From contig OZ004595.1 of assembly GCA_963924555.1 (NCBI GenBank), positions 2,542,001-2,606,000 on the forward strand: a stretch of DNA of 64,000 nt, in the 5' to 3' direction. This document shows positions 9,540 through 63,895 of the stretch, in pieces. The position numbers and the translations under genes were made by a program. The notes beneath the pieces were generated by a model that worked only from the letters and a program-made list of their open reading frames with translations, was not told the DNA's origin and ran no database searches. How positions within the stretch are numbered: the first letter of the stretch is position 1; every line of letters begins with the position of its first letter. The DNA comes from Crambe crambe (Eukaryota > Porifera > Demospongiae > Poecilosclerida > Crambeidae).

Positions 9540-9755
9540 TGTTAAAGATATTGCACTCTCCACTCATTACATGCACCTAACACGTGGCTATGGATATACG
9601 GACTCTAGAACATTCTAGAACATTCTATTCTATTGTATCATGATTCATGCGTGCAGTTTTGTCAGTCAGACACTTTTGATCCTTTTGTTAAAGTCATTAT
9701 TGTTGCTGTTGTCTTCGCGCATTGCTACCTGCTGTGCTATCCAACTCCGCCAATA
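9540..9755 (+). repeat. Right LTR of the copia element
   Basis: Same 216 bp as the left LTR, with no difference found by eye. The element's coding region ends just inside it. Confidence 0.95.
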
Positions 9756-24391: not shown

Positions 24392-27300
24392 ATGGAGATG
24401 ATAGTGCGTTTGCTTATCCTCAGTTCATGCCTAACGCCCAACAGTATATTGGTTGTGGGAATAGAAGTGGTCTTCGACCCCAGCACACTATCTCAATATG
24501 ATGCCAGGTAAATTTCATTCTAGCTTTTATTAAAACTGGCTAGGAGTTTTCATGATGCTCATAGCATGGCATAAAGGATAGCTAATTAGCTGATGGCCAC
24601 ATAGCTAGCAGAGATGGATACAGCCCAGTAGAATTTAATGTAGCTAAGCTAGTGGTGTAGCCTGGATTTGAAGGGAAGCAAGTATAGACCTTAACAGTAA
24701 TGTGACTATAAAATGTGAAATATCCCATTGAGCATGCAGCTGTAATCTCAACTAGAAGGCGCTTGAGCATCTTTGGGCAGTATTGTAGATGTTCAGATTT
24801 GTTCAGTTAGCAGTATTTTAGCATGCCAGTGTTTTGCCTTCTTGAGCATCGAATCCTTGGGCTAGCCATTGCAATATTGTTGCCAAGTGCTAGTTCGTTG
24901 TTGTTGTTTTTTGCCAAATACAACTATCTAGGTTCACTTTCATTCGTCATGGTCCCATCTTGCCCACCTGCACATGCTCAGTTGCCAAACTCATCATAGA
25001 GCATAATTTCAAGAATGTAATTTCAAGAGTGACTCTTTATTCCCCCCAAAGTACTAGGACGGTTGGTTGCCTGCAGCCCAGCCACATGCACATTGCACAC
25101 TGCAGTTCAAGCATGGCTAATCCTGTGGGTGATTAAAGCATGTACTTCTAGACCACCCTTCTCTATTAATTAAGGCTCAGTTCTAAGATTACACAACTGC
25201 TTAGAAACATGATAGAGTCAGGTATCTAACTGCCTCCCATTTGTTCCTGTAAGTAGGTTCAGTGCATGTGTGATGGTGTTCGTATCAATGGAGTTGTTAA
25301 TTTTTTTACATTCATCCCATAGCAACCCTCTTCAGGTCACTCTGGGAGATCAGTTGATCATTAGATGTCCTGATTTCGACAGCAAGATTTATCGACTTGT
25401 AAGTTTACGGAAATATTTAAAAGTTTTCTGTTTGCATGCCTGTGGAATAGATAGAGCTTCTACATTGCTATAATTAGAAGTTTTATAAATAGCATCGTTT
25501 ATTTGTTGTTTGTTCAGGGGTACCGGGTGGAATCCATTATTTCAGCTGCTGTGTAAACTTTAAAAATTGATATAAGTTAAATCAACATCAAGGCCGGGGA
25601 TGCATGGCCAAATTTCCTAAAATCTAACAAAAATTCATAATCATGTTCAGTGTGTCAGGGTTCTGTTGTATGAAGTGAATGGACTTGTGAAACTATTGAA
25701 CAAGTGTATGCCAAGTCTGTTGGCAGTTGATTGTCAATTGCTCTATACCCGTGCTTTTGTGTTCTACCGAATGGCACATTTGCTAATGAACTATAGTTGG
25801 AACAATGAAGTGATTTTCAGAGAGTGCGGTAGCACTCTCTATGTAGGGATGACTCGGACGGCTGCGCGCGCCGCCTATAGACTAATACTAAAGTGAAATT
25901 CTAGTTCCCCCACTTAGACCTAACAAAAGCTACTGTGAATGATTATCCAGCCTACTAGAGCCTACTACAATGTGCAGACCAAGTTTCAGGACCAGGGAGC
26001 TTACCGTTTCAGAAATACGGCAAGCAGGTAAATCGCTGGATTCTTCTTCTTCTCTATTATTATTATTATTCTTCTTAGACAACCATATCTCTTGAACCAC
26101 TCAAGCTACAGCTATGATTTCTGGATAAATCAACTCCAAATTTATGAACTACGATCTTTTCTACTCGTTGATCCTCGAAAGAGTCGATGAAAAAGGAGAC
26201 ACTACGGAGCACAGCACTCGACTAATTCGATTAGGAAGCCATCTTTTCTATAATACGCATGCGCATATCCAATTATTTGAAATTATAATATTACTCAGCT
26301 GTCTCTAGCTAGCTAGTTCTAGCTAGCTAGCTCTAGATGATGATAGACTACTGTATCTACTCGGGGATTTAGATTCACCACGGTAGACCATCTTCGACCT
26401 CCAAGTACACAACACCTTGACTCGTTGATAATGATGGCTGGTATGCTGGAGAACTATTCTTTCATCTGTCCCTGCATAGCTACACATAGAAGAATGAACT
26501 CTATACATAGCTAAAACCATAAAAGAGAGGAAAAAAGACCAGGAACAAGTAAGGGAAAAAGCATTTCGTGAAATGAAAAAAGATGTAGGGATGACCACTG
26601 CTCAAAAAAGTAAGGAAACAAGAAGGATGGAAATGGGATCAATCTTTGTTCTGTATATCCAGCCAACAATCCCTACATATACGTCGGGTAGCTTCAGATT
26701 ATAGTGTAGTAATGTACGTATATGTAGGGATTGTTGGCTGGATATACAGAACAAAGATTGATCCCATTTCCATCCTTCTTGTTTCCTTACTTTTTTGAGC
26801 AGTGGTCATCCCTACATCTTTTTTCATTTCACGAAATGCTTTTTCCCCTTATACACACTGTATCACCAGACCACTATGATCAGGTCATACACAGGGCCAA
26901 AGATCACTCAACTACATGCTATTATTACTTCCTCCATGTCATGGAGTCATACTAGAACATAATATACACTTCTCCTTACAGTGATTAATGTACATATGCT
27001 GTACATCTTGTAAAGCAATTCAAGGTACAAATAACTGTACTTTACCATGTGATATGGTACAGTTCATTGAATTAGAGAATTCTTTAACCACTTCTTCTTA
27101 TTATCTATGTACTTCCTTATCTCTTCAGTCAAGCTTGTTGCTATTATTTGTTTAGGGTCCCTCCCAATAATTATTTTAATTTGTTATGACTGTTTATCAT
27201 AATTGTGGCAGCAAAGCGGATGTTTTTATTTACTGGGCTAGACTGCTTATGTAAATACCAATGTTGAAGGCCACCCCTTTGTATGACTAATGGTCAATGC

Positions 27301-30300
27301 TGGGTTCACAATAACACTATTATTGTCTGGACATGATTATGTAATCACACTAGGGCAGCAATGACTGGACAAAGTTGACCAGAAAATGTCTTGCGACTGA
27401 CTGTTATTGTTAACCCAAAAACCTGAGGTGACTAGAAGGGTAAAGTGATAATTTCCCAGCAAAGGAGGTGATTATAAGAAGGAATTTCATTGCATTTTAT
27501 AATGCATGTGTGAAGTAATTTAATACCCTTCATATTCAAATAGGGTGATTCTAGAGTGGAATGTAGGTTATAATAAAATGGTAATTTATGGAATCTGGGT
27601 TTTAAGTTTAGACATACAGCTTGAGTCTTTGTTTCTCATTCCGCTTATTTTTCCATTCCGAAATTGCATGCTGGCCAGGGGAGGAGTATGCATACTGACT
27701 ACATAATTTCATGTAAACTATGAACAGATGATTGCAGTGAATCAAGTGAAATTCTCAGTTGCATTGTACTATATATACTCTATGCATCATGAATGATATT
27801 CACGAGGTTACTTTGTGTGGGGCCTGAGATAAGCTAATTACATTAATTGATGATTTCACATATTCTAACTATTTTTGAGAAATCCTTCAGTCTCTCCAGT
27901 CTGATTGTTTTTTTCTTTCTTTTCTCTTCTTTTACGTTGGCTAGTGGGACCAACTATACTATGACTATAGTGATTTGGTGTGTCAAAATGTAATAATCAA
28001 AAACCGATGAGAAAAATTAATGTGCCGAGGTTAGCTATCGCCATGTATCCCACCAAGTTGATGGTATGTTTTTGGTAACTCTTCATATCACTGACACTCG
28101 CAACAAAAAACAAAGCGAGAGAGTATGCACATCAGGCAGACAACACTCGTTTAAGGGGGAAGGGGCCTCGGAAAAAGAGGGAAAGAGTCCTCATATTGTT
28201 TATTCATGGTGTTGATAATATTATTCATAAGTAATTGACACTATGTGACCAATCCTGATTTAGGATTGCCAAAAGGAGAATATCAAAGAGTCCACATTGA
28301 GGGTTCCACTGTTGAGGGTTTCTATTTCATGAAGTCCACTTTGAGGGTTCCACTGTTCATGAAGTCCACTTTGAGGGTTCCATTGTAAAAGCTTTTGCAT
28401 GAAGTCCACATTGAAAGGTTCCACTGTAGGGATTTTCGAGTGGGTCCACATTGATTCTACTGTAGGGATTTTCAGTCCACATTGAGGGGTTCCACTCTAT
28501 CATAAATAAGAGTCGCTTTCTCTTATTGCAGCTGGATCGAGGAGAGTATGACGATTGTGTCTCTCACACTAGTGTGTCCATCGGGCAGTGTTTCGGTGCT
28601 TCAATTGAGGACCATTTCTTGGACATAATGATCTCCCTCACTTCTTCTTCACTGGACCAAGTGATTGTATATGAGCCAAATATGATATATTATCTTGCTA
28701 GTAAGTGTTTATACATATTTTTGTGATTTTGAAAAAGTTGAAGCATTCCTTTGTTATTATTGTTGTTGTTTTTTTGTTTTTTGTTTTTCATTCAAAAGTA
28801 CCCATGAAAGTTTTCCCTCCCAGGTCTCACTTGATCATTTGTTACATCGCTCTAACTTTCTCAATTCTGGGCCATAATTTAAAACACCAGTGGAAGGCTG
28901 ATCACTCCCTCCCACTGTATGAGGTGATTTTTTGATATTTGAAATTGGTTTAAGAATTGAGAAAGTTATAGCAGTTTTAATAAACGATCAAATGAATCCA
29001 AATAGACATTAGTACTGCGAGTTAGACCTTGGAAGTACATTGGTGCCATGGAGTCTTTCATTTGTTTTGGAGAGTGTATGTTTGCATAAAACTTCCTTCA
29101 AGCCATAAAAGTTTCTTACTTAGTGTGGCTACTCAGTTTCAAGGTCTTCATCATCACGAATAGGCTGTATTGAGAAAACAACTGGTTAGGTCACCTTCCT
29201 TGATAAAAATAGAGAAAGTGGGTCAATGCCTTTCATTGGTGTTCAGTTGAATTACCATACCTTAGCAGGATTCTGCCCAGAATTCTTGAGCTGTGGCCGA
29301 AATTTATTTTGCCTAGATGTTCATTTAGGGGCGTCCCTTTGGATGATCAAAACCATCACTAATATGTAGTACAAGCTGAAAGTAGTATGAGTAGTGGCTG
29401 AAATAGCAAAGTGGTGGCCACAATGGCCACTGTCAACCAGTGTGGGCAGAACCCTGCCTTAGTACACCTCAGCTGCTTCTAAGAAGGTACAGCAGATTGC
29501 AGTGATCTTGCAACATGAAATCCATAACAGCAAAACCAAAATTTACATAGCCTCCTTTCAAATGACTTTGGAGTTAGGCTACTTGAAAGGAGGCTATGTA
29601 AATTTTGGTTTTGCAGTTCTGGATTTCCTGTTGCAAGATTACTGCAATCTGCTGTATGCACATATTACTAGCACAGAGCTTGGCATAGTAATGCAATTAA
29701 CATGCTAGGCATATGGAAGTTGCTACAGTAGCATGGGAGAAGCCCCCCCCCCCCCCCCCTCCCTTGAGAATTCCTTTCACATAGTGCCCCCTCCTTCCCT
29801 CATAATTAAACAGTATGCTAGGAACATGTATAATCTCTGAACTGGCTACTGGTTTCTGGAAGAGTTCATACACTGGCCCTTGGAATCAAGTTTTCATTCC
29901 AAACAAATTAGTCACGAGGCTTAGGGATACAAACCATACCCCAATATAGAAGCCACACCCAGTTTGATATTTTGAGTAGCTGTGCTGCAACCCCTCATGT
30001 AAATAAAACATAATATATAACCACAAGCATGCAGAGGTGTAATAGCTGGAGCTTCCATGATTAAATTGGGACAGTACAGTATGTAACCACGGAAACTATA
30101 GAAGCTCCACCTCTGCATTTGTATATAATGTTGAATGTCTAGCAGTTGCAGTTTTTTTCCCCCCACTAACTTCATTCATGATCACCCGACTGTGGGTCTC
30201 CAGCCCTTATAATATTATTTCCATAGAAAGGTATAAACCCCCCCCCCCCCAAATTTGACGTCCCCAAATCAGGACTGCAAGGAGGGGTGCTTCCCCCACC

Positions 30301-32473
30301 AACTCATCCCCCTTCCCAAAAATTTGAAGCCTCTATCACATAATTAACTATTTTTAATTTTTTTAACGACCACTTGTGAAGGCACTATGAGAGTAGCTGT
30401 ATACCCTAAAGGGTTAAAAATTTGCTTCTTGGGACAATGATAACTTAATTTAAAAAAATTTTAAAATTATAATTAAGATATCATTTGAATCTTCTTTAGA
30501 AGCTCTACAAAATGTGGCTCTCTATTTCCAAATATGGGCACTGTAATCCACGTTAAATGACCTAAAGTACTGAAAGGTACTTGAAAACATTAGTGAATCA
30601 CTTAAAAGATGGTTTAAAAATTGTGTGTGTTGCTATGGAAAAAGGAAAGCCACATTTTGTAGTCCTTCAACATAATTAGCACTGTGTAAAGTGATGAAAT
30701 TTTACCACAATTTTTTCCTGAGTTATTACTGTCGGTCTTCATTTTTGCTTGAACGCAATATTTTGGGGCCTCAATTCTTAAGCCACACCCATTTTTTGGT
30801 TCGTAAGTACTCCAACTATCATTGAAATAGCATACTTAATTTCATGCGAATACACATTACGGTTAATGAGTAATCCAATATTTTTTAGTGCAAAATTTTT
30901 AGCCAGGGAACCCCCCTTAAAGATGTAATAATCATATCCGTACATACATGAGGTCTCAATGTGGGTCTGTTATTTTTTTCCCCTCAAGGTTTTGTAAATG
31001 GAAGTACAAGCCCATTATCTGGAGGAGCATGTACTCGTGGTTTTAAGATGGCCATTGAAGTACTTCCTAATGGTGGTGGTGGTGGTGGTGGAGGAGGTGG
31101 TGGTGGAGGAGGAGGAGGAGGTTCTACTTCTGTGACTGCGTCTGCTGGAGGTATGTCTATTGTATGTATGTATGTATGTATGTATGTATGTATGTATGTA
31201 TGTACACTGATATCAGATCCTCTTATAAATGGTCACTTCCCAACTCATTTAAAAACTTATGACCAAATCTCTGTTACCACCAGCTCTGTATTGTTGCAAT
31301 AATATTAAATTATTTGAATTAGGTACTGAAGGTCTCTCGCCACCATCATTTGGAACTAACGAAATAATAATAGTGGCTGTTGTGGGAGGAGTTTGTATCA
31401 TAGTCTTGCCGATTTTAATAATACCGATTTTAATAATATGTGTTGTAATGTATAAGAAGAAGAAATCAGGACAAAATATTGAAAAAGTCGATATCGAAAA
31501 AGTAACTCTAAAGGAGTCACCACCAGGATCATTGAATTCAAATGATATAGAATCAGCAAAAGGTAAACTGAATCAAGATAAGAAAACTGAAGCCAAACGT
31601 AGACGAGTAGAACCTGACTCAACTGTTGAGTTTGATGTTGGGAAAAGGAAGGCAACTTTTCGTAAGCAAACTAAAGATGAGACTGATGCAAATCCGACTC
31701 GTGCAGCTATGAAAAATGGGAACATTCCCAGCAAAAGTGGTAAAGAAGGTGGTGGTAAGAAACCGACTCCGAATGCTGCCCTAGGTTCAGCACAAAATGG
31801 TAGCAGATCAAGACCAGGGAAGGGACTTCAAAATCAAAGTGTATCTGGATCAGAGAAGATAAAAGGGCCTTCACAGAAGCAAGGTGATGCTAAAAATCAA
31901 AGTGTATCTGGATCAAACAAGAAAACAGTGCCTTCACAGAAGCAAAGTGATACTCAAAATCAAAGTATTTCTGGACCAGAGAAGAAAAAAGGGCCTTCAC
32001 AGAAGCAAAGTGATGCTCAAAATCAAAGTGTATCTGGATCAGAGAAGAAAAAACAGAAGCAAACTGATCCTCAAAATCAAACTGTTTCTGGACTGGAGAA
32101 GAAAACTGGACCTCTACATAACCAAACTGATGCTGGAACCAGATTAAATCCAACAAGGCCACTTTCAACAAGTCACTACTCAAATCATAGTAAGAATATT
32201 GGTGCGAAGACATCAAATTCAGAAAGTGCAAGAAAAGGAATTGGTAGTGGGAAAGTTGCCCCTGAAAGTAAACAAGAAAGAAATAGAACTACTACCACAC
32301 AACCCACTAACAGCAGTACAAATGGCCAGTCTGGAAATTTGAACAAGACTCCCTCTAGAATTGACAGGCCGAAACGAAGTGCTCCTGCACCACCTGCACC
32401 ACCTACCAGCAGCCTACCAGTATCAACTGGAAAAAAACGAACAGGACGGGATCCCCATCATTCTTTGAAATAA
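24392..32473 (+). CDS. Ephrin-like membrane protein A, poly-Gly linker and repeat tail
   Basis: Five exons: 24392-24507, 25323-25398, 28532-28700, 30989-31150, 31323-32473. Total 557 residues, frame continuous, intron phases 2-0-1-1. Signal peptide from MEMIVRLLIL. The head (exons 1-4) follows the ephrin ectodomain order: VTLGDQLIIRCP, Y.L, EYDDC, a third Cys (GQC), a YYLAS strand and a fourth Cys (GGAC). Four cysteines match the two disulfides known in ephrins. Then come 17 glycines, a short Ser/Thr stretch, a membrane helix (VAVVGGVCIIVLPILIIPIL, about 31370-31445), KKKK and a Lys/Ser/Gln-rich tail. The tail has five ~21-residue units around QNQSVSGSEKKKGPSQKQ (31828-32140) and ends in Pro-rich text. 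Known ephrins bind Eph kinases; ligand activity here is inference. The promoter side and intron 2 carry the two inverted arms. It lacks the N-terminal Trp of its paralogs. Confidence 0.75.
25819..26851 (-). mobile_element. Right ~1.03-kb inverted arm, in intron 2
   Basis: Reverse complement of 22631-24216 without the nested LINE. Begins AGAGAGTGCGGTAGCACTCT, itself a small hairpin, and ends with the palindromic MITE at 26550-26851. It lies in intron 2 of the gene at 24392-32473, so exons 1 and 2 sit in the 1.6-kb loop between arms. Confidence 0.8.
26550..26851. mobile_element. Palindromic MITE, full copy
   Basis: Same family as 1-220 and 22631-22912; this copy keeps the GGAAATGGGATCAATC stem extension also seen at the window start. 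Confidence 0.85.
26852..28531. other. Rest of intron 2 of ephrin-like A, with a minisatellite
   Basis: 27165-27256 is a dispersed repeat shared with 17436-17535. 28270-28500 holds degenerate tandem units of about 30-50 bp built on GTCCACATTGAGGGTTCCAC, ending just before the exon 3 acceptor at 28531. No other gene seen. Confidence 0.6.
28701..30988. other. Intron 3 of ephrin-like A, with hairpin MITE
   Basis: 29488-29656 is an inverted repeat of about 75-bp arms (CAGCAGATTGCAGT against ACTGCAATCTGCTG), a MITE. A smaller hairpin lies at about 30030-30118 (TGCAGAGGTG/CACCTCTGCA). C runs lie near 29743 and 30240. No gene. Confidence 0.6.
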
Positions 32474-32739
32474 TTAATCGCTAGCTACACTCTTTAGTTA
32501 TTACAGTCCCTCATCATCATTAATGCATTGTGTTTGTTGTTGATATCCTTTACCAATGAAATGATGACTGTCACAAAAATTTAATGATAATCGAGTCAAA
32601 ATCTCATGTATCACCCAAATAGAGCATAAAAACAACAAAATACAATAGTTACATGTAAATGCAATTAAACTTGCTCAAAAAGTTCAGGTTTCCTGCCTTC
32701 AAATTGTTCACAATTGTGCTCGCCTGTCTGCTATCTCCC

Positions 32740-34200
32740 ACGTCCCTGTGACTGATCCATCAGCAAGCCCCCCAGGTCCCCCACATCACACTGTGGACAC
32801 GGCTTACTCCCCTTTCCATGAGAACTTAACACCCTGCTGAGGTTTTTTAGCCCCTTGACTTGCCAGGATCATGATTCACTCTATCCCACAGCTCGGACCC
32901 ACCCATGTCTTCCTAACAAAGTTCCTAATTCAAAGTTCATTAATCAAAGTTCATTGTAAAGGCCCAGTGGGCATATAGAGTACAGAATTAAAAGTTCAGA
33001 ATAGCTCGCTCATGTCATCACTACACATGTAGATGCCAACTTCACCTCGGATGAACTTTTGCAAGAACTGTCATCAGTTTCAGACTCTGACTTGACTACC
33101 TGTGTCACTTTGCTAAATTATTTTAACTTTAGTTTTGTTATACCATACATTAGTCACTGACTCTGACTGAACTCTGTTCAATTAGCTACCTGTGTTCTTT
33201 AGCTAAGCAGGTGGTCCCTTTGAACACTGACACTTTCACACACTGGGCATGCAGATGTAGCATGGGAGGGGAAAGCGATCACACGTACCAAGTTCTTCAG
33301 CCCATCAACACATCTCTCACCGCCATCCAGTGCAAGGTCCCATAGCCTCGGCCATCCCACCTCACTTTCAATCTTCGCTCATGAACCAGGCAGATGGAGC
33401 TGATGTCGTCAGAGAGAGAGAGAGAGAGTAAGGTCTGGGAACTCAGAGTATCACTATTCTCCAGGGCAGTAATTTTGCCAAGGAACTTCAGTTTTCTCAC
33501 CAGACACAATGCTCTGGCAGTTCTCAGTCCGACCACGATAGAGGCTGGTGTGTTACAGTACCACTGTGGGAGTTTGAGGAGCCTCTTTGTGAGTTCCCCA
33601 AGGAAGGAGTTCAACATTTGGATGGAGTTTGGTGTCAGACACCAGTTCTCTGCACCATATTATAAGAGCACAGGTAGGATGCAGGTGTCCACGACAGACT
33701 TCCCAGACACAGGTGAGAGTTGCTCCTGGAAGAGACCCATGCTACCATAGGCAAAGAAAGATTTCCTGGCCTTCAAGATGTAATCGATTGATGGTTTGGC
33801 CGAAAGGTCGTGGTGCCATTTGAAACCGAGGTATTTGGCAGTGCCCCTGGATGGCAGGGTTGTGTTCTCGATCTCACAGACAGGGTGTGGGACATTATTC
33901 TTCTGGGCAAAGGAGACAATCTCACATTTACTAGGATTTAGCTGGAGGAAGTTGTTCTTGCAAAATGCGTAATCTGCTCTTCAAGAGTGGTGGCTGATGT
34001 GGACAGGGTTCTGATATCATCAGCATGCAAGTAGGCACCACCTTACAACCTGTTCACACAAGCCCAAATCCGATGACTCCAAAGATGTCAGCAGCGGGTC
34101 CATTACAATATTAAAAAGAGTCGGGGAAAGGACTGAACCCTGGCGCACACCTCTTTCAATAGGGAACACACGAGATGAAACTCCATCGACACACACACAG
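32740..34200 (-). mobile_element. Decayed LINE (non-LTR retrotransposon) fragment
   Basis: Minus-strand text near 34140-34080 reads GVRQGSVLSPTLFN, the reverse transcriptase motif before the active site; the expected YADD appears as HADD near 34030. Further on are FAQKNNVPHPVC, LSAKPSIDYILKARKSFFAYG and LPVLLYGAENWCLTPNSIQ (33930-33590), typical of the thumb and connector of jockey/CR1-like elements. 32900-32770 resembles the C-terminal Cys region (PCPQCD). There are several frame changes and no upstream endonuclease, so it is a dead 5'-truncated copy. Confidence 0.75.
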
Positions 34201-34428
34201 CAAGTCCCATCTCCTTGATAGCTCGAGTGCGCATGCGCATATTATGCGTGCGCAATGGCTGTCAGTTATGCCATAGATTAAAGAATGGGTTTTGCTCTTA
34301 TACAGGGGTGCTTTATCGCGTGTACTGCGCGCTGACTGACGCACGTCGTTCGTTCATCACACTATTACAAGCTGGGCAACTGGAATGCTTAGTTTCGCTC
34401 CTTCTAGGGTGCTTTATCACATGCACAC

Positions 34429-50192
<15,764 letters not shown>

Positions 50193-50436
50193 TTTCAGAA
50201 CTGAAAATAGTGGGTTCTGGAGCCAAGTGATTCCAAAGTCAGCACAAGATTAGCTACTCTGAGATAAACCCAGCACAAGTGTACTGTTCAGGACTGAACT
50301 AAGTTAAGTATACGTAGCTAATTTATTATTATACATTATTTAGTAGCTAATGCTCAATAATTGGAAGACTACTGTTAAGACGCATTGATTGGCTGATATC
50401 GTCCCCAAATGATGGACAGTCACATTCGATAATGCC

Positions 50437-50484
50437 TAGCCTCGCGCCAGGCTCTCCTGAGAGCTAGAGCCTGGCGCGAGGCTA
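50437..50484. repeat. Short perfect hairpin between genes B and C
   Basis: TAGCCTCGCGCCAGGCTCT pairs with AGAGCCTGGCGCGAGGCTA around a short loop. It lies about 125 bp before the next ATG. Its TAGCCTCG end resembles the element at 47480-48223, so a tiny MITE derivative is likely; a role as a terminator or insulator is untested. Confidence 0.6.
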
Positions 50485-50609
50485 TGCTATGCGATCATGT
50501 GATACAAGCAGCATGACGCAAAAAGCGCGTGTGAATTGTACGTACATTATGTCATGATGTGTCTTCAAGACGCTACAGAATTAGGTAGATAACTCCAGCT
50601 CCATGCATA

Positions 50610-52200
50610 ATGCAGGAACTCAAGTGCTTCGTATTGATTTCATTGGGATACTTCATTCTGATTCAAAGTGGTAATATAGGTGGGGAGATGCCAAGAATTG
50701 AGATCAATTGGACGAGGAGTGGCATTGCGAACTTCAAACCCAAGTAGGCTAAGTATTGGAAGATTCGTTTTAGAATTAGCTAGATCAAACGTTGGTGGTT
50801 TGTTTCATAAGCTAATTTTATAGGAACTAATTCTATTGAATTATTATACTCTCATTGTATATGCAGCACTCCATTGAATATGACACTTGGCAGTTTACTC
50901 ATTATCAACTGCATAAATCGCAATTATAGCACTATCTATGTATTGGTAAGGAAGAAACTGCTATAATATTTCATGTTAGAAATAATTAATTCATGTTATA
51001 ATTAATTTCATACGCTGCAGCTAGCTAGCTAGCTATATAGCTTGTAATAAGCTCTGTTATTTTGATACAGGTACAAGTGTACGAAAATATTTCAACAATA
51101 AAATAAAAACAAATTACTGTATCTAAGTTATATCTGACTGTATAATTGTAGCTAATAAGTATTACATTATAGCTAACACTCATCTGTATGGCCCATCCTA
51201 GCATACCTTCCAAGAATCTAATACACAAGTCTGCAATTGATATGATCACATCATATCCTCCCTTTGTAATTACAGACCGACCGAAGGCAGTATGATATGT
51301 GCAGATGCAGTGCAATTGAAGCAGGATGTGTTAGTTCACAGCTAGTCAGTCAAAATTGTCATCCTGAAGTAGGAACTGTCCATGTTCCAATCAACAATTC
51401 TCAAGGAATCAATAGTTCTTTCCGGTATACACCAGGAGCAGTGTTCTACTTAGCATGTACGTAAGCCTGAACAAAAGTGAGGGAGGATTTGCATAATTTT
51501 GTGTATGTAGAATACAAGAAATTAGAAGTGCTAGCTATAGCTAGCTAAATAAAAAATTTCGGCTAGCTAGCCTAGTTTATAAATTTTTTGGGTTCATGAA
51601 TTAAAGGTATTAGTGCTCTCATCACAAGCATTTATTACGAAGAGAGAGTTTTGGTGTAGTGCTGCAATGGGTTAACTAGCTATACGTAGCTATAATAATC
51701 AAATTTTTCTCTTGAAACAGCTTTCCCTAATTCAACGAAAGAAGGAGGTCCATGCCTTCCAACTAACACTGAGCCTGGAATGAGAATGGCTATTGCTATT
51801 GCAAGTGAGTGTTGGTCATCTATGTAGATACAGCCCAAAAACTGGACATTTGCCTCACTGGTTAGCTAGCATCTATACTCTCTTTATGACAGCTATAGGT
51901 AGCTATGAGCCACAAAGATAATTATGTATTAAGTGGATTGTCTCAGAATTGACTGCAAAAAGATCCTGTAGCTCCTTTAACTTTTATAATTAATTACATG
52001 CATTGCAGGTACGTCTTTCAATGGATCTGTACTCCAATCACAAATCACTGGCTCTGCACTCTCTATACCTACAAGTGTTCCCACATTATCCAGTAGTGAA
52101 GTTAATGTACACACTGTAGCTAACTGACTTAAAAATTTTATACTCCTAATTTGGCATAGCAACTACAAAAATTATATGCAGATACTAGTCATACCTTTTT

Positions 52201-52236
<36 letters not shown>

Positions 52237-52390
52237 TTTTGTGCTTGCAGATTCAGTTATAATAATTGCCGCTGCTGGAAGTTTTGGTGGTTTAGCACTC
52301 ATAGCATTCATTATGTTTGGTATCATCTTTATGCTAGAAATAAGGGACAGAAAAAAGGCAAAGAAAAAGATGATGAGGCGCAAAAATTAG
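50610..52390 (+). CDS. Short ephrin-like membrane protein C
   Basis: Six exons: 50610-50743, 50867-50945, 51276-51456, 51721-51804, 52009 to about 52092, 52251-52390; about 233 residues, phases 2-0-1-1-1. The ATG at 50610 is used because the one at 50603 runs into a stop. Signal peptide MQELKCFVLISLGYFILIQS. Head: EINWTRSG, LGSLLIINC, YDMCRC, AIEAGC, FYLAS, EGGPC, the same cysteine layout as B and E. A ~28-residue Ser/Thr-rich stalk replaces the giant mucin. A membrane helix (IIIAAAGSFGGLALIAFIMF) is followed by a short Lys/Arg-rich end, MMRRKN. This is the closest to a plain ephrin-B form but has no C-terminal PDZ-type motif. The exon 5 donor is weak (A|GTAGTG or A|GTGAAG); its exact end is uncertain. 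The first intron is only 123 bp. Confidence 0.7.
52198..52240 (+). repeat. (TTTA)n just before the last exon of C
   Basis: About ten TTTA/TATT units run up to TTTTGTGCTTGCAG, the acceptor of exon 6 of the gene at 50610-52390. Confidence 0.85.
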
Positions 52391-53618: not shown

Positions 53619-54360
53619 TTAATTTCGCCAGATAGCTACACCTTCCAAATTCGGAATACTTTTCTCAATGAAACGCTTGTAAGGGTTACAAAACTGCATA
53701 GCCATGGTATCATGAATAAAAAGGTTATCATTATCAGGTGTGGATATAAGAGGGGGGTACATATAATGAACAGAAGAAGAGCCATGTTGCATGCTCCATT
53801 GCTGAGTACCATACACTTAACATGCTTGGGACACAATAATTATATATGTAGTTATAGTCCAGGAATACCTGGTAACAATATTATTATAGCTGTGTTTTAC
53901 CTACATTTACCTCCAACTCTTCATTAAGTGTCACCCCACGTGTGAGAAAAGGCTTCACATATCATAGGTGACCTTAAAGTTGGAAGGAAGTCTATAGTGC
54001 ACCCTCTTATGACCACTGGGTTAACACCATTGAGCATCTGTCGACCAAATTCTACATCAGCCATCCAAAGAGAAGCTTGATACAATGTGAGATCACCTTG
54101 CTTGAGATCATTTGAAAGTGTAGTGAAATATTCCAAACTATCAACACTCTTTTATGTCCTTGTGGCATCACACTAACTGCAGTTTTAAGAGTGAAATCAA
54201 TATTCTTCACCCTTGGAAATTGTTCATCTTCAGGAAGGCTTGAAACACTATCATCTCATCTATTCCAGAAGGGACCCCTGTCAGGGAATAGTGCCCATTG
54301 ATACTGTTGCTTTCTTTTATCGATTTGATTGCTTCAGTCATACACCAATACAGCACTACT
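53619..54360 (-). pseudogene. Lipoxygenase-like gene fragment
   Basis: 54136-53924 on the minus strand reads SLWMADVEFGRQMLNGVNPV followed by VIRGC, close to the conserved lipoxygenase stretch W..D..FG.Q.LNG.NP..I..C. Upstream text (about 54350-54170) includes YQWALFPDRGPFWNR and LPEDEQFPRVK, which suit the region before it, but with frame changes. The catalytic iron-binding His region was not found in the window. A relic of a fatty-acid dioxygenase gene is the best reading; an exon of a spliced live gene is less likely given the broken frames. Confidence 0.45.
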
Positions 54361-55264
54361 CTTGATATCTTTCAGCGTGGCTACACATGGGAAAGTAATA
54401 ATAGCTAAGTGCAGACCCTTCAAGGTATAGGCTACAATTAGGATTGATAGTGCATTGTCTCCTGAAATTTGTAAATTTTTCATGCATTGTGTGGTAATCA
54501 TTATATGGGAAAACTCATGCACTCACTGCATGCACATGTAGTACTGATCAAAAACAACAAAGACAAAACAAAACAAACAAACAAAAAGTCTTAAAGACAA
54601 TGATCGATGAATGTGTGAGACTTCAAAATGAAGCTTGCGAAAATATTCATGGAGCATTTTATTCGATAATAATTCACTGCATGGAGACATAGTATTCTTT
54701 ATCCTTTATCCTCAAACCAATAGTCTCGTCCCCAGACCCCACCCTCGCAAAATTAAAAGCGGAAGGAAGAGGGTGGGGTCTGGGGACAAGACTACCTCGA
54801 ACCCAGCCTGGGCAAGGCTAAGTATTCTTGTACTTAAGAATGAATGAAAATAATGATGAAGCTTAATTGCGTCATTGATTCATTGGAGGCTCTTATAATA
54901 CAACTTACCAGTACTGGAAATGGTGCATGCAGTGATCAATAGCTAGTAGCTAATGCATGCAAAGAGGTCAATCAGGGAAAAGATAGCGCAGTTTATGAAG
55001 AGAGGCTTTGTTCTTTGACAAGAGGATAATTTATGGCAGCTCCGGACAAATTTTTCGTCACACCCCAGACAAAATATAGCTAGCTATCCCTGGACAAAAT
55101 ATTTCGTTACAGGCCACCCACTAGGTGTTTTGTGGTAAGCAATGCATGCCAAGCATTACAGGTTCACATAAACAGCAATTACCTAGCCAGTTTCTCATGC
55201 ACGCGCCATGCGCGCGCAAACAATTAGCTACCCTCACGCGACGCGCGAGACGTTCAACAAAAAT
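54361..55264. other. Intergenic with one hairpin MITE
   Basis: 54721-54794 is a palindrome: TAGTCTCGTCCCCAGACCCC against GGGGTCTGGGGACAAGACTA. 55020-55110 has three GACAAAAT(A/T)TTTCGT-like repeats. 55190-55264 is the GC-richer upstream region of the next gene. Confidence 0.6.
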
Positions 55265-57858
55265 ATGGGGTATCTCACAAGAGAGTCAATCCTAGGCATT
55301 GTTTCAATCACACTTTTCACTCCCATGTATCGTGCCCAGGAAGGACTGACTATCACCATCTCTCCTCCAACCTTCATAGCCAGTGAAGGAACAGACTTTA
55401 CCTCTACCTGTGTTGTATCCAGCCCTCCTCAGAGTCTGATCATGCTAGTGAACAAAACTGTGCTAAGTTCACCCAATATAATAGAAAGAAGGATTAATCG
55501 CACTGCACTATCCTTTACACTATCAAAAGTAACAGCAGCCTACAATAATACTTCATTTCTGTGTCAGGCTATCGTAGGATCTAATGTATCCTATAGCTCT
55601 TTTCAAACTCTTCTTGTTCAAGGGATCTTATCCCCACCTACACAGTTATCTGCAGTTATAGATGATAGGATCACAACTATTTTTTGGAAACCGCCTTTCA
55701 CTCTGGACATTACAAATGAAGACCCTGATGTTGAGTACAGGATATGTTTGCATTTAAGTGAAGTTACTACAGGAAATCCATCCTGTGTGATCGCTGTGAT
55801 GACCCAATTCTCAAATCATAAATTCCTCGATTTATGTGAACTATCAAATACACCAATTTCAATATCAGTCACAGCTCTTAACGTGGTTGGAGAGAGTAGA
55901 CCAATTGATATCACCTACAAACACTGTGATGGTAATAAAGAGCTTGTATGAATGCTGGCTCTCTATAGATCTATAAAATGGCCTGCCCCTTACTTTATGT
56001 CTGATCTAGAATCAGTAATATTGGGCAAATGAAGAAAATACACTATGGCTATCATGTCATGTGATACATTTTGTGGTCATCCATATGTATGTATGTGGAC
56101 TGTTATGAGGTTTAGATACCAAAATCGAAAAAGTTCAAATTTTGGTGATTCGTGTATACCTTTTGATTTACTATATCCCATCCATTGCAGTGATAGCTAC
56201 CAATAAGCTACCTTGCTATTAATAGCATGATTAGTTTTACGTACTAGACAGTTTTTTGTGTCCTTAAATAGATATGAGTAACTATAATACGTACCAAATT
56301 TCAACTAAGCCCTAGAGATGTGTGGGGAAATGATAACTCTAACCTAACCTTTTTACACTCAGATTTTATTAATTTTTTGCTATATATTATTCTCCCCTAC
56401 TATTCTATAGTACCACAACATGTGCTAGTGTACAGAAGGCACAAGGTCATAATAAGAGAAGTAACCATTTTGGGATTTGCTGCAGTTGTGATGGTTACAG
56501 TCAGCATATGTGTGTGTTTTTACTGTCGAAAGAAATTACCAAGACAGCCTGATGCAGCAAGCACAAGCACACTAGATGGCTTTAAAAATGGCATATCCAA
56601 AAATGAACATGTTATTGACCATGGAGCTTCACAACCTAAAACACTAACAACATCCACTCAAACAGAACAATTGAGCGATTTTGAGACCCATCCATTGAAT
56701 AGGAAACAAAAGACTGATTCTGACAAAAAGGATATATTGATTCAGAAGCAAGAAAGTCTTTCAGATTTTGATGTTGGCATAGCACGTTTATTGAAAGAGA
56801 GAGATGTGGAAAAGCAAGACAATAACTCAGAATTAGATTATACATGTAGTGTAACACATCCATTCATTCAGAAGCAAGAGGCTGAATTTGAGAATAACAT
56901 AACAGATCCATTGATACTGAAGCAGGAAAATGATTCAAATCTTGATTGTAGCATAACACATGAGAAGCAAAAGATCGATTCCAAAACTGATCATGAGGTA
57001 CAGAAGCAAGAGATTGATTCTGGAACTGATCATGGCATGAAACTCTTTTGGAAAAAAGAAAGCAACTCACATAAGAGCATAACACATCCATCAATCCAGA
57101 AGCAAGAAACTGATTGTAAAACTGATCATAAAATGACAGATCAAATACTAGATTTTGATAGCACAGTACGTCCATCGATTCAGACGCTATCTGATTCAGA
57201 GTCTAGTTTTAGCACAGTACATGGGAAGCAAGAAACTGATTCTAAAACTCATCATAAAATGACATATCGAATGCCAGACTTCGATAGCACAGTACATCGA
57301 CGTCCAAGAATTCAGACGCAATCTGATTCAGAGTCTAGTATTAGCACAATACAGACTTTTTCTGATGCTGATCAAATTCAGAACATAACACGTCCACTGA
57401 GTCATAAATTTCGTGATTATAGCATTAAAGGTCTATTTCAGAGTGCACAAAATCATAGCCATGACACAATAACAGTACGCCCTAGATCTGAAGGAGGCAG
57501 AAGTATGTCAAGTCAAAACAGTATGAATCAACAACGAAGGACGTCAGCCACAATAAATATAATGGTGGAACCAGCCGAGAGGAGACATTCAACAGGAAAC
57601 GTGGCAGTGTTGAATGTTGGTGAGAGCTCCATATTGAACGTTGGTGAGAGACATAGACGTTCATCATTTGATAGTTACAGCAATCCCCGCAGCACTCCCA
57701 CACACAGTCATCTAAGTAGTCCCACACAACAAGAGAATTTTGATATAGGACCGGTGCGGCAATCAATCAACAGTTATCAAGATGAAGAGGCAGGACTACT
57801 TCCTGAGACTCCACTGTCTTCAAGAAGCATTTCTGCACCTCCAGGAGAACCTTATTAG
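55265..57858 (+). CDS. Ig-FN3 single-pass membrane receptor with repeat tail
   Basis: Two exons, 55265-55931 and 56411-57858, phase 1, 704 residues. The ATG at 55265 is preferred over an upstream in-frame ATG (55208) because it opens a signal-like segment (GIVSITLFTPMYRA). Residues ~30-115: an Ig-type domain (STCVVSSPP ... TSFLCQAIVG, Cys to Cys) with N-glycosylation sites. Residues ~120-220: a fibronectin III domain (SPPTQLSAVIDDRITTIFWK onward, then ISVTALNVVGESRP). The membrane helix is at about 56463-56530 (ILGFAAVVMVTVSICVCFYC). The cytoplasmic tail (~430 residues) repeats ITHPSIQKQETDSKTDHKM-like units, then a Ser/Arg-rich end; no kinase or phosphatase domain. It sits between ephrin-like genes C and E on the same strand. 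Likely a surface recognition or adhesion receptor; ligand unknown. Confidence 0.75.
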
Positions 57859-58566
57859 CTTTAATTGCTAGCTATCACAACATAAGTTGTTGTTGTTGTT
57901 TTTTCAATAATTACATAGCTACTATTATTATCTTGTTCCCAGACCTGCCATGCCATAGATTTGGTCCGTGAGGACAAGATATGGCAGCCATATTTTGTCC
58001 GGACAAAATATGGCAGCCATATCTTGTCCTCGTGGACCAAATCTGGTTGCAATATTTGGTCCCCTCTTGCCATATTTTGTCCCCCAATCCCCTTATTTTT
58101 TGTCCAGACATAATTATTTTTGTCCATGGGACACTGCAATTTTCATCCAGACAATTATAAGCAGTTATATTTTGCTCAGACAAAATACGACAACTACATT
58201 CTGTCCAGCCATTATTATAATTCTCAGACATTTTTTTAATCTGGACAATTACAAATAATAGCAGCTATAGCTAGCTAGACAAAAAACCATCTATAGCTGT
58301 AGCTATAGCTGCTATTAATTTTTTTCCAAGGGTAGCAGAGCTATATCTGTACTAACTAGCTATAAACTTTTATCCACCTCACACAAAATTCATCCCATCA
58401 ATAATAAAAGATCATAAGCTATACTCCACTGAATTCTTGAAACTGAGACAGAGGAACCATACAAGTTGAATTTTGATCAGTAAGAAGACTTTATGTAAAA
58501 ATCTGCTGATCTAGCTATATGCTTGTTATTGTTGTTGTTGTTGTTTTGCTACCAGCTGTACGCATA
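57859..58566. other. Intergenic with hairpin and TTTTGTCC repeats
   Basis: 57959-58041 is an inverted repeat (TTGGTCC.TGAGGACAAGAT and complement), followed to about 58250 by degenerate units on (A/T)TTTTGTCC(A/G)GACA. No gene. Confidence 0.6.
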
Positions 58567-59157
58567 GTCTCGCGGGCCGACCCTTTACCAACGCATGAGC
58601 GTTTCGTTCTGCACACTCAGCAAAATAGAACGTGCTAATGATTTGCGTGCGTCACAGTGCGTCACATAATTGCGCGCATGGAATAGTGCTACCATAGATC
58701 TTTTAAAAGAGTAGTCTGGCGTTGCCAGCCCAGATAGCTTTGAGGTTATTTTTTATGGTGGCCGAGAAGGGTCACCCGCGACCGCTTCGCAAATATTTAC
58801 TGCCGCCCGCGGTATCCACAATACCGCCAGCGGTACCCCACGCATCCCGCCAGCGGTACCCCCCCCCCCCCCCCCCCCCCCCGCATACCGCCCGCGGTAT
58901 CCGCGGTTGGTTCCGGCATGCATAACAGATCCGGAGACCCTTTACCCAGTACCACGTGTCGCGCGCGATCGCACGAGCTGCAGATCCGGAGACCCTTTAC
59001 CCAGTCATTGATGTACTGATTTGTAATATTTTCACCGAGATACGCCGAAAGAAATGCATCAAGTCCTTAAAGCGATTCTGCACCTTACACATAATTATCT
59101 CTGTTGCGGTATATTTATTATTATAATGGATGATTCAGACTGGTATGTGGGTACAGC

Positions 59158-59651
59158 AATGAGGTTGGGGGAAAAATGAAGGGAACAGCAGAGATCACGA
59201 GAGTTGGTGAAATGAAAGATGAATAAGTTTGTCCTGTTCCACACACTAACAATCTAGCACAAAAGAGAACAGAATATTGACATCATTATAATTATTTTTA
59301 TTTCACTAGATGATACCTTATCACCGGTTGCACGTTTGCTGTGCTTCCTTCAAACATAATTGTATTACTTCATGATATATATTGAAGAGGTAATGATGAG
59401 GTTGGGGGGGGGGGGGGGGGGGGATGAAGGGAACAGCAGATATCACAAGGGTTGGTGAAATGAAAGAATAGATTCATGACTAAAAGTTTGTCCTGTTCCA
59501 CACACTAACAATCTAGCACAAAAGAGAACAGAATATTGACATCATCATAATTATTATTTTTATTTTGCTAGATGATACCTTATCACTGGTTGCACGTTTG
59601 CTGTGCTTCTTCAAACATAATTGTATTACTTCATGATATATATTGAAGAGG
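59158..59651. repeat. ~245-bp tandem duplication
   Basis: About 59158-59396 and 59400-59651 are near copies (GAGGTTGGGG, ATGAAGGGAACAGCAGA, TTTGTCCTGTTCCACACACT, GTTGCACGTTTGCTGTGCTT). The second overlaps the last exon of the minus-strand kinase gene, so its 3' end has been duplicated; a long G run marks the junction. Confidence 0.8.
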
Positions 59652-61213
59652 TAAGGGACCAACTCCCCTCCCCTCTTGTCCACTGCAGTGAGTAGTGTCT
59701 TTGGTGCCCGTACTGCTTCATCAAATAGCTCTACCTACACAATTAAAAAATAATAGCAAAATTAATTTTCCATTTAATATTTTTCTATGGACCCAACAAG
59801 GGTTCATAATCAAAGAAGTGACTTTTCTTTTGATTATGAACTCCTGGCCAAATTAATGATAACACTCCCAAGTTTGGTTCTTTGTATGATACCAAGGCCT
59901 CTGATGAACTTGGAGATCTTATTGCAATGCAGACCATTAGTTATAACTATTGGCTCTCAATTATTAAAAATGCTGGCGTGCTCTTTTTAGGGATTTTTCA
60001 TAAAAATACAGTGCAGAGGTACAAGGGAAACCTGATATCCACACTACTCACCAGTGTGCGGTCTTCTCTGGTTTCATCATAAGCCTCGGCACCAGTCAAA
60101 GTTTCCAAAGTGACCTGGACAGTATTCATTTTGTGAATGCCAAGCTCTCTCCTCATCAACTTACTACACCATAGGCATAGACATCTGTTTTTGGAGACTG
60201 GTGGCAGGTGTCCAGCTCTGGGGCACTACACCCCAAAGTCTTTGCGACTGACTTGACAGTGACCAGAGTTCTCCCTGAAATAACTGGTGGCAGCTCGCGT
60301 GCAAAACCAAAATCACCAAGCTTGCCAGAAAAATTTGCATCCAGTAAAATATTGGCCCTTCAATCAGCAAACATTGTAATGTGCCATCCATCAATGGTAT
60401 ATACTGCTAACGTTTTCAAGTCACCATGGACTAAGTTGGCTGCATGTAGCCACACCAGCCCCCTGCTAACACCTTTCAATATCTTTGAACGTTGCTGCCA
60501 ATTCAATGCTTTCTTCTATCAGATCAGGATATCAGGGGTAGATCAGAGTGGCTACATACACTTATTATACATACTTGACTGTGTTCCCCTTCTCCATATA
60601 TTCATATATTAGTATGGGGGGGGGGGGGGGGGGGGGGCTCACACAGAAGCCCATTAGATCTACCAAATTTTGGTGCCTGCACCTATAAAATTTAATACAA
60701 GCTCTCAACTACTCATTAGATGTCACACTACCATACCTGCCTAAAGCCATCATCTCTTCCCTCATGAGGTCAGCTGGTGAGCATGAGGTGGCCAAAGTAG
60801 TGGAAGTAAATGAGGCAGCTGACTTGCTCTATCAAAATAATACTATTTCATAGCTATCTTCTGTAATAAATACAAAATAGCCAATACGTACCTCAATGGC
60901 ACTCCACATCACCCCAGATGGGGGGTCCCTACAGCGTCTATTCAGGCCAAGCCTCTTTAATCTCCTTTTCAGCCAGCTTAAACTACTTTGAACAAAGTAA
61001 CTTAAAATTCCTGCTTATAGAATTAAACTAGCTCTGGATTTGGACCTTCTTGATAGACCATGAACCAGCTGAAGCCGATGAACTATCCTTTGATAACTCC
61101 TACCGGAGTAAAAATATTCGGTCAGTAGCTCATCAACACCTGCAAAGGTAAAAGAAATCAGTATAGGCCCAGCCAGTAAAGCTGTACTCACCACTCGCAC
61201 CTGCACCACGCAT
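59513..61213 (-). CDS. Chimeric HTH-kinase gene inside the TIR element
   Basis: Exons on the minus strand: 61213-61192, 61139-61046, 60985-60892, 60828-60737, 60676-60575, 60515-60412, 60357-60165, 60114-60052, 59734-59513; introns mostly 46-65 bp with GT-AG. From ATG 61213 it reads GVDELLTEYFYSGRSY, LVHGLSRSSLSWLKRRLKRL: the helix-turn-helix N-terminus of integrase/transposase proteins. It then splices in frame to a kinase of IRAK/RLK type: LMREEMMALGRHQNLVDLMG, YEYMEKGN, HGDLK, ANILLD, GDFGFAREL, SAPEL, DVYAYGVVTLETLTG. The Gly-rich loop and the ATP-binding Lys are absent, so catalysis is doubtful. A 22-G run (60616-60637) encodes seven prolines in frame. The junction of the fifth and sixth listed exons misses frame by one base, so the copy may be dead. 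The 3' end is uncertain; the stop at 59513 assumes no further intron. Confidence 0.6.
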
Positions 61214-61573
61214 TGCTTGACCTTGACACGTGGTATAAATTACTGGGTAAAGGGTCTCGGGATCTGTCATGCATGCCGCGCCGCGCCGGAACCAACCGCG
61301 GATACCGCGGGCGGTATGCGGGGGGGTACCGCTGGCGGGTACCGCTGGCGGTATGCGGGGGGTACCGCTGGCGGTATTGTGGATACCGCGGGCGGCAGTA
61401 AATATTTGCGAAGCGGTCGCGGGTGACCCTTCTCGGCCACCATAATTTTTACAGTGAATTAATTATCGGTCCGAAACGCTCATGCGAGTTTCCCTTCCCT
61501 TCGGTTGGTAAAGGGTCGTCCCGCGAGACTAAGCTACGCAACCAGAAACAGATTTCTTCGAGTTGTATGAGCC

Positions 61574-63895
61574 ATGTTTCTTAAGTGGTTTGTATTGATT
61601 GCACTTGGATGCTCTACTCTAATTCAAAATAGTAAAGTCCTAGGCGTTGAGCTCAATTGGACCAGAAGTGGCATTGCAAACTACAAACCCAAGTAAGTAG
61701 CTGTCATGCAGTTGCTCATCATAGCCCAATCGTTAGAGAGTATAGGTACGTAGTTACATAGAATTTTTTATGAAAATCCTTATCATTTTACAGCTCTCCG
61801 TTAACTGTGAGTGCCGGTGTTAAACTTAAAATAAATTGTATAAACGATAGCTACAGCACTATCTATGTATTGGTAAGGAACTACTGGTATAACTGAATTT
61901 TGTTATAGCTAATTCTTATTACAATTACAGACTGACAGAAGGCAGTATGATATGTGCAATTGCAGTGCAATTGAAGCAGGTTGTGTTAGTTCACAGCTAG
62001 TCAGTAGAACTTGTTTTGCTCAGCTCAGATTTGTAGAAATAACGATCAATCACAATTCTGAAGGACTTGATAATTCATTTGATTATAGACCAGGAGAAAC
62101 ATACTATTATGCATGTAAGCACATAATCATATAGGGTAGGTAGCTATTCAATAATGTACTAATGGGTTGCCCTTCTGTACTGTTCTCAACAAGATTTTCT
62201 TGTTATATGTTATAACATCATTAATAACACCATTAAGCTGTGTGACCTATAAGCAGTTAATTCAACTATGTTCTTGAAACAGCTTTCCCTCATGGAACGA
62301 AAGAGGGTGGTCCATGCTTTCCAACCAACACTGAGCCTGGAATGAGAATGGCTATTGCTATCCAAAGTGAGGAAACAGGTAGGTTGGCATAGCTAGCTAC
62401 TAGTAATTACACAATGTCATAAGGTGTTTGACTGTTAAGGTGTTGGTTGGAAGCTATATAAGCATTGCATTGTTACTTTATACAATTGAAATAGTACAGT
62501 ATTATTAAGGTAAAGTTGGGCTATTTCGAACGGCGGGGCTATTCCGTAGGTTCAAATATTTCTGAAACTACCGAGACTTTTGAGCTCAATGTTGGAGGAT
62601 ATAATCTACTATAATAGTAGAATATATCTTTCAAAATAGAGCTCTTAAGCTCGTGAAGGTTTGAAAATATTTGACCCTATGGAATAGCCCTGCCGTTCGA
62701 AATAGCCCCGCTTTACCTTAACAGTTATTCTCTCTGTATATGATTATTTTTGGAATCTACTACATTTCTTCAATTCTTCAATTTAACAACACAACATTGT
62801 AACGTCTTTAACTTCACAACTAAATACAAAAAACTGTTTGAGTTTGCTTTAATTCGCCAAAGTTTGCTCTGTAATTATTAGTTTGCCAAGTGTTGAGCTA
62901 TGTATGCGCCCAAATTTAGTTCCATCGAGCTGGTAATTTGAACTGAAGTGAGTAATGGATAGATCTAAGGTAGGAAGGAACTGGAGTCACCAATTTTGAA
63001 CAGTTAGTGTAGCTTTCTCCTTTTTTTTTTCTTTTTTTTCTTCTTTTTTTTTTTTTGTCATCATCGGGCCATGCCACGATCTTCTCTTCCTGTGGAGTCA
63101 ATTCTAACTATAAGGAGATTTCCACCAAATCTCTCTGTTGGAAGCAAGTCCTCTTTTGGAAAGACTGAGATGGCAAAAGCTGTATGTGGTAGGTAGGTGA
63201 AGAGTGCAAATATAAAGGGAAGAAACTACAGCCTATAGCCATCACCATTGGAACCGCTTTATTGTACCATCCCAATCTATAGAAGAGGGACCAATTAATC
63301 TATCCCTCAGTTTGCAGGTTCATGCATTGTTAGGATTCCACCATTCCAATCTACTACGAAATACCATATCAATCTAATTATTATATCCACTCCCCATCAC
63401 TGCTAATTCCCAAGCTCCAATAATATATTGAATGCATGGTTACATATGAAGTATTCAGTGAAACAATGGAACCTCAAGCTTGTTATAGAAGATAGTGTGA
63501 AGGTATTTGAGAAGAATGATGTACAATATCAATCCTTTGTGTCCTTTTAAGGTCGTCATGAAGTGTAGTACCAACACCAGATTTTCTGCACTGCAGATTG
63601 TATAGTGGGTGATATCTTTCCATTAACAAACAAAAAAATAATAATTTGGGCTCTATTATCCATGAGGTTCCATTGAATCACACCTAAGTTTCTATTTTCA
63701 AAGTCTCGTCTCTCTCTTTTTTTTCCAGGTAATAATGGAGGTAATCAAGGTGGAGATGGAACGACCAGTATATCAGATGCAGAAGGTCTTGCTGGATCCT
63801 TCTCCCTCAGCCAACTATCCCCACCAAATCACAAATACATGATTTTTATCCCGGCACTTGTTACTTTCTGTCAAGTATTCCACACACACATTTAA
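61574..63895 (+). CDS. Ephrin-like protein E, probably GPI-anchored
   Basis: Five exons: 61574-61692, 61794-61872, 61931-62114, 62283-62378, 63729-63895; 214 residues, phases 2-0-1-1, frame continuous. The ATG at 61574 is taken because ATG 61568 meets a stop at once. Signal peptide MFLKWFVLIALGCSTLIQNS. Head: ELNWTRSG, SAGVKLKINC, STIYVL, RRQYDMCNC, AIEAGC, TYYYAS, EGGPC, the closest match to gene C. The last exon gives a short Gly/Asp/Thr linker, Ser-rich text and a hydrophobic C-terminus (MIFIPALVTF...) with no cytoplasmic tail, as in GPI-signal precursors. Ephrin-A proteins are known to be GPI-linked; the assignment here is inference. An earlier donor at 62366 would also keep phase. Another 3' exon beyond the window cannot be excluded. 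Confidence 0.7.
62506..62722. mobile_element. Hairpin MITE in intron 4 of E
   Basis: Ends TTAAGGTAAAG and CTTTACCTTAA with long complementary arms (GGGCTATTTCGAACGGC against GCCGTTCGAAATAGCCC). No coding capacity. Confidence 0.85.

What the first reader, a model, noticed from the sequence alone, without database searches (positions are those of the whole stretch)
24392..63895. Tandem cluster of four ephrin-like genes with one shared head and four different anchors
Four plus-strand genes (24392, 34429, 50610, 61574) share a head of about 150 residues encoded by four exons with identical phases (2-0-1-1) and near-equal exon lengths (exon 2 is 76 or 79 nt in all). The head follows the ephrin ectodomain order: EVNW, LGD.L.I.C, Y.L, Y..C, C, YYYAS, GG.C, with the four ephrin cysteines. 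Beyond the head the genes diverge completely. This would be an unusual ephrin expansion in an animal without nerves or true organs.
Basis: partly seen in the sequence, partly recalled or inferred. Interest (0 to 1): 0.92.

Follow-up and report, generated by a model that had tools for sequence, protein, structure and literature searches.

The report
Sponge ephrin genes with swapped anchors
A sponge genome carries a cluster of genes that put the same ephrin-type signalling head on very different membrane anchors, one of them an enormous proline-threonine stalk, and elsewhere in the same genome a copy of that head appears to sit on the body of its own receptor.

Summary
Four plus-strand genes share an ephrin-type head on four exons with end phases 2-0-1-1. 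Beyond it they diverge: g1 has a Gly linker, TM and ~340-residue tail; g2 a ~3,260-codon Pro/Thr stalk, TM and tail; g3 a short stalk and 17-residue basic tail; the TM exon I assign to g4 lies past the window end. Ephrin similarity is consistent but sub-threshold: Pfam Ephrin matches 7 of 8 distinct heads, every score shown under the cut-off; 13 of 15 PDB profile hits are ephrins, best E 0.0047. The animal is a sponge, probably a demosponge (silicatein-type motifs), with at least nine head genes and 33 Eph LBD matches, 30 over cut-off. In the Eph array one head copy precedes, in compatible phase, Eph Cys-rich, FN3 and TM-tail exons, the LBD exon being gone: a predicted ephrin-Eph chimera. Sponge ephrins were published in 2019 (PMC6485061); I met no report of the chimera or giant stalk in the papers listed or opened. 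No transcript or fold was tested; g2's stalk has one frame change.

The parts
24392..32473 (+). g1: ephrin-type head (exons 24392-24507, 25323-25398, 28532-28700, 30989-31150 incl. poly-Gly linker), then exon 31323-32473 with TM and a long basic tail; 557 aa
   Evidence: Pfam Ephrin E 6.5e-4, under cut-off
34429..37129 (+). g2 head exons 34429-34538 (GC donor), 35529-35607, 36139-36310, 37046-37129
   Evidence: Pfam Ephrin E 1.4e-4, under cut-off
37198..46963 (+). g2 stalk exon: tandem TTPPP-type then [18 protein letters not shown] repeats, 2,501 codons in frame A plus 763 in frame B; one frame change near 44,686; 3' end is my count of the donor in the sequence printed
47107..47309 (+). g2 TM exon, phase-compatible with stalk frame B (my phase count)
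48951..50192 (+). g2 cytoplasmic tail exon, 413 codons, contains SGYYD
50610..51804 (+). g3 head exons 50610-50743, 50867-50945, 51276-51456, 51721-51804
   Evidence: no Pfam Ephrin match at E up to 1
52009..52390 (+). g3 short Ser/Thr stalk exon (52009 to about 52095, donor uncertain) and TM exon 52251-52390 with a 17-residue basic tail
61574..62366 (+). g4 head exons 61574-61692, 61794-61872, 61931-62114, 62283-62366 (alternative donor at 62378, same phase); assigned TM exon outside the window at 64826
   Evidence: Pfam Ephrin E 6.3e-4, under cut-off

Best explanation
These are transmembrane ephrin-family ligands of a sponge. A head module (signal peptide plus ephrin receptor-binding domain) whose last exon ends in phase 1 has been duplicated and joined to different phase-1 stalk and TM exons. 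Shown by sequence: shared head, conserved phases, different anchors, many Eph ligand-binding-domain matches in the same genome, three of them 70-84 kb past the window end. Inferred: the head binds Eph ligand-binding domains on neighbouring cells; stalk length sets reach (about 1 micrometre if the g2 stalk is extended, from a recalled length per residue); tails differ in reverse signalling (Tyr motif SGYYD in g2 and g4, no tyrosine in g3's). At C18:4.363-4.369 Mb a g4-like head has replaced the LBD exon of an Eph-type gene whose model has no kinase exon, giving a predicted ephrin-Eph chimera.
For: Pfam Ephrin is the only family matched by more than one of 8 distinct heads: 7 of 8 at E up to 1, best 8.8e-5. 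PDB profile: 13 of 15 hits up to E 10 are ephrin-B2 or B1. Phases 2-0-1-1 in 4 of 4 window genes. A hydrophobic segment in each anchor, peaks 2.47-3.47. 33 LBD matches, 27 on the window's contig C18; one Eph gene read with LBD, Cys-rich, FN3, TM, juxtamembrane, kinase and SAM exons. Chimera: every exon junction from head exon 3 to the TM exon is phase 1 and 422 codons are open to the stop; by eye, the intron before its Cys-rich exon matches native Eph introns back to the former LBD donor. Of 22 Cys-rich exon matches on C18 of 80% identity or more covering 49-50 of 50 residues, 21 have an LBD match 281-565 nt upstream (two of these LBD matches are below cut-off) and one, this one, has the ephrin head instead.
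Against: No Pfam score shown reaches the gathering score of 25 bits; g3 gave no Ephrin match at E up to 1. The first PDB profile was weaker: best E 0.099, 11 of 13 hits ephrins. No transcript evidence. g2's stalk has one frame change. In the chimera, reading through the exon 4 donor gives a stop soon after, so a secreted head plus a separate headless Eph-type gene is possible. Of the 26 C18 Cys-rich matches I tabulated, two others also lack an LBD within 3 kb upstream: 4493557 (76% identity) and 4420886 (partial).
Confidence: 0.8

Rival explanations
1. The heads are a sponge-specific cupredoxin-like adhesion family related to ephrins but no longer binding Eph receptors; the anchors serve adhesion or mucus-like coats.
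For: Every Pfam score shown is below cut-off; two extra cysteines in g2-g4 and a hydrophilic stretch where ephrins have the G-H loop (my reading).
Against: Many Eph LBD matches coexist in the genome; cysteine order and the GG.C motif are kept in 8 of 8 aligned heads.
Confidence: 0.15
2. The locus at C18:4.363-4.369 Mb is two units: a secreted or broken head copy beside an Eph-type gene that lost its LBD exon, i.e. a pseudogene pair.
For: The head copy is young (dS 0.057 to g4, exons 2-4); read-through of exon 4 ends in a stop; the array holds other partial LBD matches.
Against: All eight modelled exons are open, introns GT-AG, phases compatible; differences to g4 in head exons 2-4 are 4 synonymous and 2 non-synonymous; same strand and order.
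Confidence: 0.35
3. The g2 stalk is a non-coding satellite and g2 ends shortly after exon 4.
For: A read-through stop follows exon 4; one frame change exists.
Against: 0 stops in 7,481 nt of frame A against 7-405 in the other five frames, and 0 against 2-100 in the second array; 40 of 41 spacings of the GGATCCAC marker there are multiples of 3; both ends are phase-compatible with head and TM exons.
Confidence: 0.12

Closest known systems
Sponge ephrins of Krishnan, Degnan and Degnan 2019, PMC6485061 (seen: abstract, background, results through the lineage-expansion part, section 11, and found passages)
   Same: Divergent ephrin RBD found by HMM, conserved cysteines, TM anchors; lineage-specific Eph expansions and Eph architectures without a kinase are reported for sponges
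   Different: They report 13 ephrins over 8 sponge species; here at least nine head genes in one genome, a giant Pro/Thr stalk and a head on an Eph scaffold. The word beginnings chimer, fusion and stalk do not occur in that main text; its supplements were not seen
Ephrin-B2 (top PDB hits)
   Same: Aligned from the Gly-Asp strand to the GG.C motif; TM anchored (recalled)
   Different: Best E only 0.0047; heads are split over four exons and g2-g4 have two extra cysteines; vertebrate gene structure was not compared
Spongilla ephrin, PMC10176882 (passages seen)
   Same: Sponge ephrin found by HMM and by predicted fold; differentially expressed in pinacocytes
   Different: No cluster or anchor swapping in the passages seen

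Membership tests
Ephrin (PF00812) | Profile match over the curated cut-off | tested here: not met
   20.1-22.3 bits for 3 of 4 window heads, no match for g3; cut-off 25; 7 of 8 distinct heads match at E up to 1, scores shown for one only, 19.5 bits. I call them ephrin homologues by best match
Ephrin (PF00812) | Four cysteines in ephrin order | tested here: met
   8 of 8 aligned heads keep C34, C57, C73, C128; disulphide pairing as in PMC6485061 not tested
Ephrin (PF00812) | Conserved aromatics (W25, F120, Y126, Y127 of 3CZU_B) | tested here: inconclusive
   W present in g2, g3, g4 but not g1; the tyrosine pair varies; positions mapped by eye
Ephrin (PF00812) | Membrane anchor | tested here: met
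   Hydropathy peaks 2.47-3.47 in the four modelled anchors, g4's outside the window
Ephrin (PF00812) | Cupredoxin fold | not tested
Ephrin (PF00812) | Binds Eph LBD | not testable with these tools
   needs protein binding
Eph receptor (C18:4.08 Mb gene) | LBD, Cys-rich, FN3, TM, kinase, SAM | tested here: inconclusive
   LBD E 9.7e-11, SAM_2 E 6.6e-17, EphA2_TM E 6.2e-8 are met; kinase exons only read by eye, no HRD exon seen among frames of 50 codons or more; one FN3 domain seen, where two are usual (recalled)
Eph receptor (chimera locus) | Ephrin ligand-binding domain | tested here: not met
   No LBD match listed between 4359331 and 4379204; ephrin head in its place

The most novel reading that the evidence does not exclude
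The ephrin head is an exon-shuffled recognition module in this sponge, and at one locus it has replaced the ligand-binding exon of an Eph receptor at its splice boundary, making a protein with ligand head and receptor body. Ligand and receptor would then share one scaffold, allowing new wiring of contact signalling, perhaps in self-recognition.
Probability: 0.4. Interest if true: 0.8.

Novelty: new variant of a known kind. Interest (0 to 1): 0.6.

Why it matters
Ephrins and Ephs are thought to be among the early animal contact signals. A sponge that swaps the ligand head between anchors, including its own receptor's body, would show how a ligand-receptor system is rewired by exon shuffling, and gives a system where reach and reverse signalling can be compared with related heads.

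Tried and rejected
Pfam Ephrin against the whole genome, frame by frame, gave 0 matches, and 0 in the tool's control genomes; the head exons are short. Pfam at E up to 0.01 on 9 other window frames, including the g1 and g2 tails, gave hits only for a Ty1/copia-type element. The kinase search listed one match inside the C18 Eph array but scored 121 of 1944 candidates, so it says little. tblastn of the four heads against the window, 60 kb on each side and the first 20 LBD loci gave no further head; the best hit outside the four genes was E 0.38 or weaker. In the first stalk array a cruder spacing marker gave 161 of 348 spacings divisible by 3; it recurs inside units, so I do not use it. Pfam gave nothing at 0.01 for the isolated Cys-rich exon, an Ig-like piece near 2.69 Mb, or the Ig/FN3-looking window piece.

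Paper searches: ephrin with sponge (117 papers, 20 listed), with chimeric and others (47: 167, 15 listed), Porifera and tandem (48: 5), exon shuffling (65: 0), demosponge (66: 5), Eph gene cluster (67: 2). In these listings and the papers opened I met no ephrin-Eph fusion; most listed papers were seen only as title and start of abstract, and subscription papers are not held. PMC8242945 and PMC8662651 were opened for passages and added nothing. Structure prediction was not run.

Full report
The window is C18:2542001-2606000 of a 143-Mb genome in 119 contigs. A silicatein-type active-site pattern, written from memory, matches six places on contig C15 and none in the reversed control; two of the loci were translated and fit a silicatein context (recalled). 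I take the animal to be a sponge, most likely a demosponge; its species is not known to me.

Heads. Conceptual splicing gives four head exons in each gene, end phases 2-0-1-1 in 4 of 4. The mature heads share 28 invariant columns of 141. Pfam Ephrin matches g2 (1.4e-4), g4 (6.3e-4) and g1 (6.5e-4), not g3 at E up to 1, all under the cut-off. With eight distinct heads standing for nine genes, 7 of 8 match, and the profile finds ephrin-B2 or B1 in 13 of 15 PDB hits, best E 0.0047; with the four window heads alone it was 11 of 13, best E 0.099.

Anchors. g1: Gly-rich linker, TM, basic tail, 557 residues. g2: exon 5 is a stalk of Pro/Thr repeats, 2,501 codons at 87% Pro plus Thr, then 763 codons in a second frame; both together hold 1,568 Ser/Thr and 29 N-glycosylation sequons. 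The stalk frame has 0 stops where the other five frames have 7-405 in the first array and 2-100 in the second; one of 41 marker spacings in the second array is not a multiple of three, at the frame change. TM exon 47107-47309 and tail exon 48951-50192 fit in phase (my count). g3: short stalk, TM, 17-residue basic tail. g4: assigned TM exon past the window end, with SGYYD in its tail, as in g2's tail.

Genome. The g3 exon 3 query gives 8 matches: g2, g3, g4, three g4-like copies on C18, one on C17 and a weak one (E 0.015) on C3; the g1 exon 3 query finds only itself, so divergent heads may be missed. That makes at least nine head genes: g1-g4, C18:3.331, 3.351 and 4.368 Mb, C17:3.626 Mb and an intronless one at C3:8.281 Mb whose open frame includes a hydrophobic segment. 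The copies at 3.331 and 3.351 Mb do not differ in exons 2-4; dN/dS between pairs with a finite dS above zero runs from 0.12 to 0.61, and pairs with g1 are saturated.

Receptors. LBD search: 33 matches at E up to 1, 30 over cut-off, 27 on C18 and 6 on C11. Three lie 70-84 kb past the window end. By eye their loci show LBD and FN3-like exons, with Cys-rich exons, and for two of the three Ig-like stretches further on; Pfam did not confirm the one Ig-like piece tested. At C18:4.08 Mb a gene with LBD, Cys-rich, FN3, TM, juxtamembrane, kinase and SAM exons was read; only one FN3 domain was seen, and kinase exons were read by eye.

Chimera. At C18:4362984-4369064 (minus) a g4-like head is followed by an Eph Cys-rich exon, two exons that together make one FN3 domain (E 5.7e-12) and a TM-tail exon; the spliced reading is 422 residues with a TM peak of 3.85. 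The Cys-rich exon alone gave no Pfam hit but is 80-92% identical to 21 others of the array. By eye, the intron before it keeps native sequence back to the lost LBD donor (compared with five Eph loci). No LBD match is listed between 4359331 and 4379204, and the LBD gene at 4379204 has its own Cys-rich exon. I tabulated 26 of the 30 C18 rows (59 rows in all; left out: 4420822, 2676333, 2681889, 4327431): 23 have an LBD within 3 kb upstream, 3 do not. The TM-tail exon has 19 matches, 16 of them in C18:4.25-4.50 Mb, so it belongs to the array and not to the head. None of the 59 Cys-rich matches lies within 70 kb of the other eight heads.

Mechanism. Juxtacrine ephrin-Eph contact is inferred from family knowledge; what each anchor does is inference. 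Background in print: PMC6485061 (parts read), PMC6993872 (passages) and PMC10176882 (passages) describe sponge ephrins; the first also describes kinase-less Ephs and Eph expansions.

Noticed in passing
window 5811-9545 (+): Ty1/copia-type element in one open frame of 1,244 codons with gag, integrase and reverse transcriptase domains.
   Followed up: no
window 11095-14748 (+): Single open frame of 1,217 codons without a Pfam hit at E up to 0.01.
   Followed up: no
window 55187-57858 (+): Between g3 and g4, a gene that by eye looks like Ig plus FN3, TM and a repetitive tail; no Pfam hit at 0.01.
   Followed up: partly
window 3229-4592 and 15727-19880 (-): Similar membrane-type open frames on both stretches, probably local duplicates; three of them gave no Pfam hit at 0.01, the rest were not tested.
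   Followed up: no
G000 C15:872855-884857: Silicatein-type motifs in three units about 5.05 kb apart, each a minus/plus pair.
   Followed up: no
G000 C18:4.25-4.50 Mb: A Tyr-containing TM-tail exon with 16 matches in the Eph array, pointing to Eph-like receptors without a kinase.
   Followed up: partly
G000 C16:5.42-6.05 Mb: Dense run of tyrosine-kinase-family matches, most in long single frames.
   Followed up: no
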